DNA of 64,000 bases from Natronogracilivirga saccharolytica (GTDB lineage Bacteria; Bacteroidota; Rhodothermia; Balneolales; Natronogracilivirgulaceae). Shown here piece by piece: positions 5,616-57,117 of this stretch; within the stretch, counting starts at the first letter, position 1, and every line of letters starts with the position of its first letter. Position numbers and translations under genes: made by a program. The notes under the pieces are model-generated. The model was not told the origin of the DNA. It saw nothing but the letters and a program-made list of their open reading frames with translations, and made no database searches. Location: assembly GCF_017921895.1 (NCBI RefSeq), contig NZ_JAFIDN010000001.1, forward strand, positions 186,001-250,000, given 5' to 3'.

Positions 5616-7049
5616 CTACCAAAACGTATGATTTACAGGTAATGCACGGGCTTTCAACCAGCTCTCCTGCCACTCCTCTTCCGGATCTGAATCGGAAGTT
5701 ATGGCACCGCCTACAGAATAGTACAATCTCCTTTCTTTAATAATGGCCGTCCGGATGACAACGTTGAAGTCAAAATCATCATTTGGGGCAAAATAACCAA
5801 CGGCACCGGAATAAAGCCCCCGGCGATAAGTTTCCAGTTCATCAATTATTTCCATTGTACGAATTTTCGGTGCCCCGGTCATTGATCCCATAGGAAAGCA
5901 GGCCCGGATAATATCCACTGATGCCATACCGGTGCTGACTTCGGCCGAAACAGTGGAAACCAGTTGATGAACCGTCGCAAAACTCTGTACTTCAAGCAGA
6001 GAATCGGTTTTTACAGTACCGGTTTTCGCCAGCTTGCCAAGATCATTTCTCACAAGGTCGACAATCATAACATTTTCTGCCTTGTTTTTCTCCTTGTTAA
6101 GAATGTCGCTGATAATTTCCCTGTCTTCTTCAGGGGTGCCTCCTCTCGGCGATGTCCCCTTGATTGGCTGGGAGACAACACGATTTCCCTTTCGCATCAG
6201 AAAACGTTCCGGCGAAGCACAGCAGACATCCACCCCATTGTATGTAATCCATGCAGCAAACGGCACCGGTCCGTGCCCTCTCATATTATCAAATAACTCA
6301 AGAGAACCGGATTCAAACGGACTCTCGAGCTGATGAGTAAAATTCACCTCATACGTATCCCCCCTGGCGATATAATCCTTGATCTGCCGGATCTTGGCGC
6401 GATAGTCCTGCCAGCCTTCTCCCGATTTCAGGGTGCCGGATGGCAGCTTTTTGTCGATGGATGCTATTTCCTGTGAATACAATCCATTAGTATTTTGGGA
6501 ATTGAACTCTGCCACGCCCGCAGGTACGGTATTACACGGGCCTTTTAATACTCTGACGGAGAGTTGCCTGCGATCGACCTCCAGCAGCGACGAAGGGATA
6601 AAAAAACAGAGATCGGGCAATCTGATGCGATCCTCGTTAGCAGAGGAAAGCGTTTCGATCCTGTTTTTCAGGTCGTAGGAAAACCATCCGAACATCCAGT
6701 CCTTATGCTCCCTGCGATAGGCTTTCAGGGCTTCCCAGGGATCGGTTTCTTCCCGTTTGATCCAGGATTCAGGTCTGTCCGTCGCGGCACCCAGACCTGC
6801 ATTCCGGGCATCGTACTCAAAAACACCTTCCGGGTCACCGTAATCTTGCCGGTACCACAACACCGACTCGGGATTACTGGCTATGTATCCGTGCGATGAG
6901 GCCGGATGCCCGTCAAGCTGGGAATCCAGAAATACAACCGGTCCCTCCTCTTTCTTCTTCCGAAGGTAGCTCCGAATCCATGCATCGAATTCTTGAACCG
7001 TCCGGAACACCAGATTCCTTTTTACAGTTGCAGATGAATCAGCCAACAT
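5616..7049 (-). CDS. pabB: Aminodeoxychorismate synthase component I
   Basis: Converts chorismate with ammonia or glutamine nitrogen to 4-amino-4-deoxychorismate in folate synthesis. The chorismate-binding half is clear: PIKGTSPRGGTPEEDR (Lys about 297, the PabB signature; TrpE has Ala there), IVDLVRNDLGKLA, and GSMTGAPKIRTMEIIDELE. The open frame extends to 7100 inside pabC. I chose the ATG at 7049 (residue 18 of the long frame) because it reduces the overlap with pabC to 11 bases and matches the family's length. The order pabC then pabB suggests translational coupling. The glutaminase subunit PabA is not in the window. Confidence 0.93.
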   Translation of the reverse strand: MLADSSATVKRNLVFRTVQEFDAWIRSYLRKKKEEGPVVFLDSQLDGHPASSHGYIASNPESVLWYRQDYGDPEGVFEYDARNAGLGAATDRPESWIKREETDPWEALKAYRREHKDWMFGWFSYDLKNRIETLSSANEDRIRLPDLCFFIPSSLLEVDRRQLSVRVLKGPCNTVPAGVAEFNSQNTNGLYSQEIASIDKKLPSGTLKSGEGWQDYRAKIRQIKDYIARGDTYEVNFTHQLESPFESGSLELFDNMRGHGPVPFAAWITYNGVDVCCASPERFLMRKGNRVVSQPIKGTSPRGGTPEEDREIISDILNKEKNKAENVMIVDLVRNDLGKLAKTGTVKTDSLLEVQSFATVHQLVSTVSAEVSTGMASVDIIRACFPMGSMTGAPKIRTMEIIDELETYRRGLYSGAVGYFAPNDDFDFNVVIRTAIIKERRLYYSVGGAITSDSDPEEEWQESWLKARALPVNHTFW

Positions 7050-7944
7050 ATTGCAGATTATCGTTGATGTGTGAAGCAAATCGATTCTGAATCCGGTCAA
7101 AAAAGCTGTACTGAAGCGGAAACTCCTTGTTATCTATGCGTCCTGCCAACCCAATTCCACGGACAGAGTTGCATATCCACACAGCATCAGCTGTTTTCAG
7201 AAAGTCGGCGGAATACGCACCCTGATTAGTGTTGATATCCATTTCATCCAGCACTTCGATGATGGTATTCCGGGCAATTCCTGGAAACAAATCACAGGAA
7301 ACCGACGGAGTAAATACAAAATCGTCTTTGATCCAGAAAATGTTTGCGATGGTTGTCTCGCTTACCCACCCCGTAGTGGTCATCATCAGTGCATCATCAG
7401 CATTGTGCGACTGGGCCTGTCGTGCAGCGAGAATGTAATTTATCCCGTTGGACCATTTTACATCTGCAGGAAGGGCAGCGTGTGGTATGCGCGGGACAGT
7501 ACTTGTAATCAGATTGACTCCGGCGGGTTTTTCGCCGGTGGTAGTGGTGATTATCCGGGATCCGGAGACATGGATTTTTGCCGTTCTGTTACCCGGCCGG
7601 TACCCTGCTGTGATATCATCAGCCCATACCTGGACGCGGATACGCACATGCTGTCCGAGAGCATCGTTGGCTTTTAAAAAACCGGTGAGCATGCCCAGAA
7701 AAGAATCGGTATCAGCCAGATATCCGGATGGTTCGAGTCCCAGATGCTCCAACCCCTTCCGGAGCCTGGTCAGGTGATCTTCCGGACGGAAAAAACCACC
7801 GGCATAATATCGCATAGTATCAAAACAGCCCTCTCCGTAACGGGCCAGTCTGATTTCGGGACTGAGCGAAGCCTGTTCTGCCGGTAGGAATGCATCGTTG
7901 AACAGGACAACAGGCAGTTTCTCTGAGGCGGTATTCCAGCTCAT
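7039..7944 (-). CDS. pabC: Aminodeoxychorismate lyase, class IV aminotransferase fold
   Basis: PLP enzyme that releases pyruvate from aminodeoxychorismate to give p-aminobenzoate. The fold-type IV blocks are present: RYGEGCFDTMRYYAGGFFRPEDHLTRL is split over residues 35-61, the PLP lysine is about Lys163 in DVKWSNGINYI, and DDALMMTTTGWVSETT gives the phosphate-cup region. The 301-residue length fits. It cannot be separated from a D-amino-acid or branched-chain aminotransferase by sequence alone, but overlap with pabB makes PabC the best call. A tandem structured repeat (7990-8184) lies in its leader; the ATG used here is 46 bases downstream of the repeat's own edge ATG. Confidence 0.88.
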   Translation of the reverse strand: MSWNTASEKLPVVLFNDAFLPAEQASLSPEIRLARYGEGCFDTMRYYAGGFFRPEDHLTRLRKGLEHLGLEPSGYLADTDSFLGMLTGFLKANDALGQHVRIRVQVWADDITAGYRPGNRTAKIHVSGSRIITTTTGEKPAGVNLITSTVPRIPHAALPADVKWSNGINYILAARQAQSHNADDALMMTTTGWVSETTIANIFWIKDDFVFTPSVSCDLFPGIARNTIIEVLDEMDINTNQGAYSADFLKTADAVWICNSVRGIGLAGRIDNKEFPLQYSFFDRIQNRFASHINDNLQYVG

Positions 7945-7989
7945 GGCGGTTATTTTTTAATCTATCTTTTGTGATATGGCCGACGTTTT

Positions 7990-8184
7990 CATGTGTTTAA
8001 AATTTTTGATTAAGTGGACACATGCAATTCCATGACCGGTTTTAATCATGCGCCTGTGTGTCCTGACGCCCGTTCGGTCATGTTCATTTCATCTGTTTAT
8101 AATTTATGATTCTGACGTCACATGTAGTACCCATGCTGGCTATAATCATGCTCCTGTGTGGGGGTAAGCCGCCATGGGTATTTC
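7990..8184 (-). repeat. Structured intergenic repeat, locus A (two tandem units) upstream of pabC
   Basis: Read on the minus strand, two units follow each other: 8184-8119 and 8092-8019, each followed by an AT-rich spacer. Each unit has an outer stem (ATGAAAT.. with ATT.CATGTG), an inner stem (CATGACCG with CGGTCATG in the second unit), and a conserved unpaired block CACACAGG.GCATGATTA. In the first unit the inner stem is ACCCATG with CATGGGT: both arms changed together, so pairing is kept. The final spacer (7990-8018) is the same AT-rich leader plus CACATGAAA found at the other loci. Here that ATG opens only an 11-codon frame that stops before the pabC start. Confidence 0.8.
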
Positions 8185-8220
8185 AACCGACGGCAGGTTC
8201 CGGCCGCATAAGTAACGCGA

Positions 8221-11829: not shown

Positions 11830-11883
11830 CAAAACCCTATACATATCTCAACACGAAAAAAAGTCAACAAGTAACACCAGATT

Positions 11884-12140
11884 ATTACATGTGACATTAG
11901 AAATCAAAAATTTAAACAGATGAAATGTCCATGACCGGGCCGGCGCCCGGACACACAACCGTATGATTAAACAAGGTCATGGCATTTCACTTCGTGACCT
12001 TCGGTTCATCTGACTGTATAAATCCAAAATTTTGAGCACATGAAATGATCATGACCGGGCCGGTGCCCGGGCACACAGGATCATGATTAAACACGGTCAT
12101 GGAATTACATCTGACCATATGAATCAAAAATTTTAAGCAC
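11884..12140 (+). repeat. Structured intergenic repeat, locus C (partial plus two full units) upstream of a flavin reductase
   Basis: A truncated unit end (ATTACATGTGAC, 11884-11895) is followed by full units at 11920-11998 and 12040-12115. Each is preceded by an AT-rich spacer like AATCAAAAATTTTAAGCAC, and the last spacer runs directly into the start codon at 12141. Inner stems pair CATGACC with GGTCATG; a second hairpin CCGGGC/GCCCGG sits inside; the block CACACA..(10 bases)..GATTAAACA is conserved. The spacing of 101-120 bases equals one unit plus spacer. The locus accounts for nearly the whole 311-base gap after the PAP2 gene. Confidence 0.85.
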
Positions 12141-12644
12141 ATGAAAAAGGTCTCCGTAAAAGAATCATTTGATGCCTTCAAGCCAGAAAGCTGCGTATTT
12201 GTCATTTCTGTAGATCAGAAGCAAAAGCCCAACGGGATGGTTGCCGGGTGGAATATGAAAAGTTCCATTGAACCGCCGCTTTATGCCGTATCACTGTCCA
12301 AAAGCGGAAACACCCACAAGTTGATCCAGCAGAGCGGAGAGTTTGTTGTTGCCGTTCCCAACAAAGAGCTTGAAAAGGCCGTACGGTACTTCGGTTCGGT
12401 ATCGGGTAAGTCTGTCGACAAGTTTGCAGAATCTGGCCTGGAAACGGTAAAGTCCGAGTATGTGAAACCGCCGCTTCTAAAAAAGGCCACCATCAATTTG
12501 GAGTGTCAGCTCTTCAGGGAAGTCGATTCCGGTGACCACATCATCTTCATAGGAAAAATCCTGGCTGCCTATGTCAGAAAGGGAAAAAAAGTACTGCTGA
12601 ATATGGAGTCTGTGGGTGGCGAAAGAGTCTTCAGGGAATTCTGA
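12141..12644 (+). CDS. Flavin reductase-like domain protein
   Basis: A 167-residue single-domain protein of the flavin reductase/DIM6-NTAB family, which binds FMN in a split beta-barrel and passes electrons from NAD(P)H to flavin or to a partner oxygenase. Visible features are PNGMVAGWNMKSSIEPPLYA and the following SLSKSGNTH (the FMN phosphate region), GEFVVAVPN, and the late GDHIIFIGKI strand. No oxygenase partner lies nearby. Start: the ATG sits exactly at the edge of repeat locus C, so its leader is supplied by the repeat. It converges with the amylase gene, 21 bases apart. Confidence 0.87.
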   Translation: MKKVSVKESFDAFKPESCVFVISVDQKQKPNGMVAGWNMKSSIEPPLYAVSLSKSGNTHKLIQQSGEFVVAVPNKELEKAVRYFGSVSGKSVDKFAESGLETVKSEYVKPPLLKKATINLECQLFREVDSGDHIIFIGKILAAYVRKGKKVLLNMESVGGERVFREF

Positions 12645-56551: not shown

Positions 56552-57016
56552 TCACAAATCCTCATACAACCAGTGATTGAGCTCGGACATTTCTTCATCA
56601 TGTACTCCAAAATAGGATTCCATCTGCTCCTCAAACGAGACATCAGAAGCAGTCGTTGTCATCTCAATGCCGGTCAGCACGACGATTAAAAGCACACCGA
56701 CTGTGATGACGTATTTCCGGAACCAGCTCCAGACAAGGTGCTCGAGCGCGAATTGATCACCGGTTTCGGCTTCTTTCCTGCGGTGGAACCTGCTTATGTC
56801 CGCATTGCCGGGTTCCGCCGCGTGCAGGTCCTGCATTTGCCCGAAAACCCCCTTTTCGCTTTTTTGCTCAAGCATCCAGAGGTGGTCATCCCAAAGTGAG
56901 GGATCATACGCCATTACCTCTTTTTTCAATTGCCGCAGCTCGTCTTCTTGCAGCAAACCATCCTGGGCGTCGATCAGTCTGCTTAAGAGGTATTGTTTTT
57001 TGTTCGGACGTTTCAT
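56552..57016 (-). CDS. Putative anti-sigma factor (single-pass membrane protein)
   Basis: A 154-residue protein with a cytosolic charged N-terminal part of about 93 residues, one membrane segment (YVITVGVLLIVVLTGIEMT), and a short periplasmic tail. It has the topology and position of an anti-sigma factor for the ECF sigma gene upstream, but no zinc-binding HxxxCxxC motif, so the call rests on context. Its ATG lies at the edge of repeat locus D, which occupies most of the gap between sigma and this gene. Confidence 0.6.
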   Translation of the reverse strand: MKRPNKKQYLLSRLIDAQDGLLQEDELRQLKKEVMAYDPSLWDDHLWMLEQKSEKGVFGQMQDLHAAEPGNADISRFHRRKEAETGDQFALEHLVWSWFRKYVITVGVLLIVVLTGIEMTTTASDVSFEEQMESYFGVHDEEMSELNHWLYEDL

Positions 57017-57117
57017 GTGTTTAAATGTTTGGATTTATGTCGTCACATGTAATGTCATGACCGTATGTAATCATGCGCCTGTGTGTCCGGATTTCAGCCG
57101 GTCATGATCATTTCATG
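57014..57117 (-). repeat. Structured intergenic repeat, locus D (one unit) upstream of the anti-sigma-like gene
   Basis: On the minus strand the unit (57117-57044) reads ATGAAATGATCATGACCGG ... CGGTCATGACATTACATGTG, with a CCGG/CCGG hairpin and the block CACACAGGCGCATGATTA inside, followed by the AT-rich spacer that ends in the start codon at 57016. It matches the second unit of locus C most closely. It separates the sigma-factor gene from its presumed anti-sigma gene. Confidence 0.85.

What the first reader, a model, noticed from the sequence alone, without database searches (positions are those of the whole stretch)
8119..8184. Compensatory base changes in the first unit of locus A
Most units have TCATGACCG pairing with CGGTCATGA. 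In this unit both arms differ (ACCCATG with CATGGGT) and still pair perfectly, while the CACACAGG..CATGATTA block between them is kept. Paired change with constant loop suggests selection for RNA or cruciform structure.
Basis: seen in the sequence. Interest (0 to 1): 0.62.

Follow-up and report, generated by a model that had tools for sequence, protein, structure and literature searches.

The report
Jumping repeats landing on start codons
The odd hairpin is one copy of a roughly 100-letter jumping DNA repeat that repeatedly inserts at the first letters of bacterial genes and supplies a new start codon, apparently with the help of an RNA-guided transposase of the IS110 family.

Summary
It marks a recurrent subfamily: 11 of 66 own-genome units have exactly these arms, 16 of 66 if the first base may be A or G. 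Covariation exists in the wider family but is modest.

The main result lies elsewhere. Read on the gene strand, each unit runs ATGAA|hairpin + AT-rich leader|ATGAA, and the 3' ATGAA is usually the start codon of a real gene (rpmJ, purQ, flgB, flgK, sucC, macB-like). In the own genome 40 of 56 arrays end on an ORF start; in a second genus 16 of 31. At rpmJ, 11 of 18 readable loci are empty and 5 hold units exactly at ATGAA; purQ repeats this.

The own genome holds an intact IS110-family recombinase in a 1,529-bp element with ATGAA at both ends, a left end homologous to unit positions 1-53 and a right end matching the last ~20 bases. Intermediate deletion forms exist. The units are best read as non-autonomous derivatives of this IS, a family known to be guided by a bridge (seek) RNA. 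The guide RNA here is inferred, not shown.

The parts
8087..8186 (-). gene-distal unit of array A, the unit of the finding (subfamily with ACCCATG/CATGGGT arms); its 5' boundary reads TTGAA instead of ATGAA
8129..8179 (.). outer stem arms ACCCATG (8129-8135) and CATGGGT (8173-8179)
7987..8092 (-). gene-proximal unit of array A (CATGACCG/CGGTCATG arms); ends in ATGAA at 7992-7988
7039..7944 (-). class IV aminotransferase gene downstream of array A; its ATG is 48 bases beyond the array's ATG, which opens only an 11-codon frame, so array A is one of the arrays NOT ending on a gene start
   Evidence: PF01063 1.8e-42
11920..12045 (+). unit 1 of array B, with the extra 19-bp module (16-base core matched at 11989-12004); a degenerate unit lies just 5' (11853-11925)
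12040..12146 (+). unit 2 of array B; ends in ATGAA at 12141-12145
12141..12644 (+). flavin reductase-like gene whose start codon is the ATG of array B
   Evidence: PF01613 1.8e-34
57011..57116 (-). single unit (array C); ends in ATGAA at 57016-57012
56552..57016 (-). 154-codon ORF starting at the ATG of array C

Best explanation
The units are non-autonomous derivatives, about 94-120 bp long, of an IS110-family insertion sequence. Each keeps the IS left end (about 53 nt: hairpin plus the CACACAGGnGCATGATTA core) and a short right end (about 20 nt, AT-rich, ending CAC or CAG before ATGAA). The IS110 recombinase inserts the IS, and in trans the units, next to the pentamer ATGAA in one fixed orientation. 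An ATGAA therefore stands on both sides, and further rounds build head-to-tail arrays. When the ATGAA hit is a gene's start codon, the element's own 3' ATGAA restores the start and the element becomes the new 5' leader (hairpin, then an A/T-rich stretch before ATG). Such insertions are tolerated and kept. Shown: dispersed family, ATGAA at both ends, empty and filled sites, start-codon bias, intact IS110 recombinase gene with the same ends, deletion intermediates. Inferred: mobilisation in trans, guidance by a bridge/seek RNA from the 195-nt 3' non-coding region, tolerance as the reason for the start-codon bias, and any effect on translation.
For: Family: 101 covariance-model matches at E<=0.01 in the own genome, 43 in G007. 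DNA matches in 17 of 20 genomes of the family and 1 of 20 other genomes of the order. Boundaries: 90 of 98 distinct 5' ends and 125 of 131 distinct 3' ends are ATGAA. Start codons: 33 of 42 and 7 of 14 own-genome arrays, and 16 of 31 in G007, end on an ORF start; in the window only 15 of 42 non-coding-or-start ATGAA sites are possible starts. Pfam confirms rpmJ L36, PurQ-type GATase, flagellar rod, FlgK, MacB/FtsX, nucleotidyltransferase, ATP-grasp. Empty sites: rpmJ 11 empty, 5 filled, 2 unclear of 18 readable; purQ 5 filled of 22 readable. In the macB-like case the 5' ATGAA keeps the stop TGA of the preceding gene. IS110: 416-aa ORF, PF01548 3.6e-27, PF02371 3e-24, NF033542 'IS110 family RNA-guided transposase' 5.1e-83, IS621 6e-12 with the DEDD positions and the serine aligned. 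The IS starts with half a unit (E 2e-7; in G002 1.9e-10). Three copies in G016, each behind a different unit, share that left end (50 of 53 identical), so it belongs to the IS and is not a target remnant. The IS 3' end CATAATTATAAACAC|ATGAA resembles the unit end. Intermediates: 212-bp right-end-only derivative at G000:C4; G002 left end + last tnp codons + right-end sequence in tandem with an IS; a unit in G018 whose first 48 bases are 98% identical to the IS left end. Activity: own-genome units reach 95-100% identity and an intact IS is present; G007 has no PF01548 match and its closest two of 24 full units are 88% alike. Literature: an IS110-family mini-IS with 29-bp left and 16-bp right ends moves in trans (PMC11187229, passages).
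Against: PF01548 is found in only 3 of 20 family genomes, one of which (G006) has no units; a DNA search adds G016. Most unit-bearing genomes thus show no recombinase, though most are fragmented assemblies and G016 copies sit at contig ends. The full IS right end rests on one complete copy (G000:C16) plus two derivatives; a second internal ATGAA (CCCCGTAG|ATGAA) leaves some doubt whether the IS is 1,400 or 1,529 bp. No guide RNA was recognised: Rfam gives nothing, and only same-strand, not complementary, target-like words were seen in the 3' non-coding region. A circle of about 100 bp, the form IS110 would need, is physically strained (general knowledge). 16 of 56 own-genome arrays, including the array of the finding, do not end on an ORF start, and in the weaker set (7 of 14, p=0.20) and G007 (16 of 31, p=0.051) the bias alone is not significant.
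Confidence: 0.72

Rival explanations
1. Structured cis-regulatory RNA (riboswitch-like leader) kept by selection upstream of genes, with the paired arm changes due to selection on RNA folding.
For: One orientation relative to genes, hairpin, some covariation, leader position at start codons.
Against: Near-identical copies at unrelated genes, tandem arrays, empty sites in relatives and shared ends with an IS110 element call for mobility. Genes served share no pathway that I can see; no Rfam match. Does not exclude later use as a leader.
Confidence: 0.1
2. REP/BIME-like palindromes spread by a Y1 (RAYT/IS200) transposase.
For: Palindromic, dispersed, arrayed; one Y1_Tnp gene in the own genome.
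Against: Y1_Tnp is absent from unit-rich G003, G007, G008, G010, G011, G012 and present in unit-free G005, G006, G009; the own copy lies between other hairpins and no unit was noticed there. Ends match an IS110 instead.
Confidence: 0.05
3. The IS110 element merely uses the units as a landing site (as IS621 does with REP), and the units are moved by something else.
For: Each of the five IS copies whose upstream flank was seen sits directly behind a unit or a shorter unit-like element; IS110 elements are known to target repeats (PMC11208160, passages).
Against: The half unit at the IS border is nearly the same in three G016 copies at different places and in the own genome, so it is IS sequence. 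Deletion derivatives link IS and unit. No other candidate mobiliser was found.
Confidence: 0.15
4. The paired arm changes arise by copying of one arm onto the other (hairpin-templated repair) and not by selection.
For: Arms are near-perfect inverted repeats in several subfamilies; changes come as whole-arm swaps.
Against: Many copies have decayed arms; several pairs change singly through G-U.
Confidence: 0.3

Closest known systems
IS110/IS1111 family insertion sequences with bridge RNA / seekRNA (IS621, ISEc11, ISEc21)
   Same: DEDD + serine recombinase domains, one long non-coding end, fixed orientation at a short specific target, core kept on both sides, mini-elements movable in trans.
   Different: Here the commonest form is a ~100-bp derivative in tandem arrays, the target is ATGAA and the landing place is usually a start codon; the guide RNA is not identified.
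Bacterial MITEs (e.g. MITECca01, MITEPye1)
   Same: Short, non-autonomous, many copies, share ends with a parental IS.
   Different: No terminal inverted repeats; parent is an IS110; insert at start codons and restore them.
REP/BIME with RAYT
   Same: Arrayed intergenic palindromes.
   Different: No Y1 transposase in most unit-bearing genomes tested; direct, not alternating, orientation; ATGAA borders.
Rickettsia palindromic elements (recalled, plus a search listing)
   Same: Palindromic elements tolerated at genes.
   Different: Those lie in frame inside ORFs (recalled); these lie at the start codon.

Membership tests
[quoted passage not shown]
   NF033542 above cut-off
IS110 family (the 1,529-bp element) | D, E, D, D and S residues as in IS621 | tested here: met
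   phmmer alignment with 8wt6; residue roles from PMC11208158 passages
IS110 family (the 1,529-bp element) | one long non-coding end | tested here: met
   about 195 nt after the stop codon, about 85 nt before the start; IS1111-like side
IS110 family (the 1,529-bp element) | bridge/seek RNA with target and donor guides | tested here: inconclusive
   same-strand words TGAAATAT, ATGAAAT and CACATGAAA in the non-coding end, none complementary; no Rfam match
IS110 family (the 1,529-bp element) | circular intermediate, no duplicated target beyond the core | not testable with these tools
   needs reads or an assay
Non-autonomous derivative of this IS (the units) | shares both ends with the parent and lacks the recombinase | tested here: met
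   left end; right end about 20 nt, resting on one complete parent copy
MITE (strict sense) | terminal inverted repeats | tested here: not met
   ends are direct ATGAA; the inverted repeats are internal
REP/RAYT | Y1_Tnp gene associated with the repeats | tested here: not met
Known structured RNA family | Rfam match at gathering score | tested here: not met

The most novel reading that the evidence does not exclude
An RNA-guided IS110 system whose guide reads the start-codon word ATGAA and whose miniature derivatives carry their own start codon and leader, so that insertion into essential genes (ribosomal L36, L34, purine synthesis) is nearly harmless; the unit's conserved hairpin and CACACAGG..CATGATTA core may themselves act as a minimal bridge RNA, and the arrays record successive RNA-guided insertions.
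Probability: 0.35. Interest if true: 0.85.

Novelty: new variant of a known kind. Interest (0 to 1): 0.64.

Why it matters
IS110 recombinases are a current genome-editing lead, and natural substrates of about 100 bp that move in trans would show what the minimal donor is. Repeated insertion exactly at start codons, including operon-internal ones such as infA-rpmJ, would be a clear case of a mobile element that avoids harm by rebuilding what it breaks, and of a whole lineage whose gene leaders are replaced by mobile DNA. It also means that start codons and leaders in these genomes carry transposon sequence, which affects annotation and expression studies.

Tried and rejected
RAYT/IS200 origin: rejected on distribution. 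Known RNA families: none. Phage spread: pattern scan of viral contigs found none. Integron-like cassettes: units carry no gene, and I saw no recombinase of that kind beside them (by eye only). A 123-aa protein behind arrays in G007 was considered as mobiliser; its neighbourhood gives no support. Reading through the element from the upstream ATG (coupling or bypass): single copies such as the G002 rpmJ unit allow it, but most units stop after ATG AAA TGA or a few codons (read by eye). KorB-like gene as an empty-site test: relatives are too divergent. RNAalifold on the mixed alignment: nothing. Mean unpaired probability near the ATG is 0.60 against 0.46 over the hairpin zone: weak, no control made. 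Papers on Balneolales repeats: none held; Cyclonatronum papers look unrelated, judged from the listing; for IS110 with 'MITE', with start/initiation codon or with other such terms no paper describing this was seen in the listings or in the passages read. Subscription journals and preprints were not searched.

Full report
What was reported. The arms ACCCATG (8129-8135) and CATGGGT (8173-8179) are real and pair. The unit is 8087-8186 on the minus strand, next to a second unit at 7987-8092. The window also holds units at 11920-12146 and 57011-57116.

The change is not private. A DNA search of the own genome gave 53 matches, and 66 units could be cut out. Eleven have exactly these arms, 16 with A or G as the first base, 28 have CATGACCG/CGGTCATG and 3 have CATGACAG/CTGTCATG. 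Ten of the single-unit matches of the variant are 88-96% identical to the window copy over 99 to 105 bases. So one or few ancestral paired changes were copied many times.

Covariation. On 67 diverse units the stems gave 81.7% paired cells, 47 two-sided changes against 23.4 in shuffles, and much lower values when slid; but the number of doubly changed pairs and of pair types was not above shuffles. With arms anchored on CATG (104 of 117 units could be anchored, 13 could not), one inner pair clearly exceeded 1000 shuffles, the others did not. The stem CATNTG/CANATG around the right end is complementary at N in 44 of the 65 units tallied. RNAalifold on the mixed alignment found no pair, on the common subset 13 pairs with almost no covariation term, on the variant subset 13 pairs with the best covariation in an inner hairpin. 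I read this as moderate support for a conserved structure, uncorrected for descent.

Anatomy. Read on the strand of the downstream gene, a unit is ATGAA | ATGnnCATGACCG - inner hairpin - ACACACAGGnGCATGATTA - CGGTCATGGnAT | TACATGTGAC - AT-rich - AAACAC | ATGAA. ATGAA stands at 90 of 98 distinct 5' ends and 125 of 131 distinct 3' ends. Upstream flanks show no other strong consensus; an A follows the 3' ATGAA in 84% of 123. In each of the 39 merged own-genome loci the cores lie in one orientation only.

Start codons. In the first own-genome set 33 of 42 arrays end on the start of an ORF of 90 codons or more, of one open to the end of the stretch, or of rpmJ; in the weaker set 7 of 14; in G007, of another genus, 16 of 31. 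In the window, 15 of 42 ATGAA sites outside coding sequence or at starts are possible starts, so about 36% is expected if all such sites were equal (a simple gene caller). Only the first set is clearly above this (p=1.7e-8; the others 0.20 and 0.051). Genes include rpmJ, PurQ-type, flagellar rod, FlgK, MacB-like, nucleotidyltransferase and a SucC-like ATP-grasp protein, and by eye rpmH, aroQ, plsX, ilvC and mnmG. The array of the finding is an exception: its ATG opens 11 codons and the aminotransferase starts 48 bases further on.

Empty sites. Between infA and rpmJ, 18 of 19 loci could be read: 11 have only a short gap before ATGAA, 5 hold units placed exactly at ATGAA (G000 two units, G002, G003 and G014 one each, G010 a partial unit), and 2 (G004, G007) have a longer spacer without a clear unit. 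At purQ, 22 of 23 loci could be read: 5 filled (G000, G003, G011, G014, G015), 17 without a unit. At the macB-like gene the 5' ATGAA still contains the stop of the preceding gene.

Distribution. 17 of 20 genomes of the family and 1 of 20 other genomes of the order match. A pattern scan of named genomes gave 28 stretches, 27 titled Balneolales or Balneolaceae and one Bacteroidota; none in viral contigs.

The parent element. Behind a full unit at G000:C16 lies half a unit (model 1-53) followed by a 416-codon IS110-family gene; its catalytic positions align with IS621. After the stop comes about 195 nt ending CATAATTATAAACAC|ATGAA, then another gene start. Three G016 copies behind three different units have the same left end (50 of 53 bases each), so the half unit is IS sequence. 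G002 has an IS110 copy (76% protein identity over residues 2-192) directly behind a shorter element made of a left end, the last codons of the transposase gene and the right-end sequence up to CCCCGCAG|ATGAA. G000:C4 has a 212-bp right-end-only derivative at another gene start. G018 has a unit whose first 48 bases are 98% identical to the IS left end. This series links IS and units.

Where it fits badly. PF01548 matches in 3 of 20 family genomes, and the protein at E<=1e-40 in 2 of 128 of the order. G007 has 43 units and no match; its closest units are 88% alike, consistent with past activity and loss. The bridge RNA is not identified. The right end of the IS rests on few copies.

Known biology used. 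IS110/IS1111 recombinases are guided by bridge or seek RNAs, excise as circles and often target repeats; a mini-IS with 29 and 16 bp ends moves in trans (PMC11208160, PMC11208158 and PMC11187229, passages only). I found no paper describing IS110 derivatives at start codons in the searches, limited to the open library.

Verdict. The thing itself is a family of short mobile elements, most likely IS110 derivatives, that insert at ATGAA and often replace gene starts.

Noticed in passing
window 11989-12004; many units with 119-nt spacing: An optional 19-bp module (CCGAAGGTCACGAAGTG, both orientations) sits inside some units at a bottom-strand ATGAA-like site; possibly a still smaller mobile piece.
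   Followed up: partly
L207 (G007:C2:405000-424500) and L211, L219: G007 has a cluster of decayed units and a variant with another 3' part (GAAGATCACGAAGTGCCCAG) that lacks ATGAA.
   Followed up: no
L079 (G000:C14): A single IS200-type Y1 transposase gene between its own hairpins; no unit was noticed beside it.
   Followed up: partly
G000:C12:46278-48005: Two arrays flank one gene for a lipoprotein-like protein; its G007 relative (L192) also starts at a unit.
   Followed up: no
variant-subfamily units, e.g. L044:624-723: From the 5' ATG these units encode a 22-codon frame (MKYPWRLTVTQEHDYSQHGYYM, read by eye); meaning unknown.
   Followed up: no
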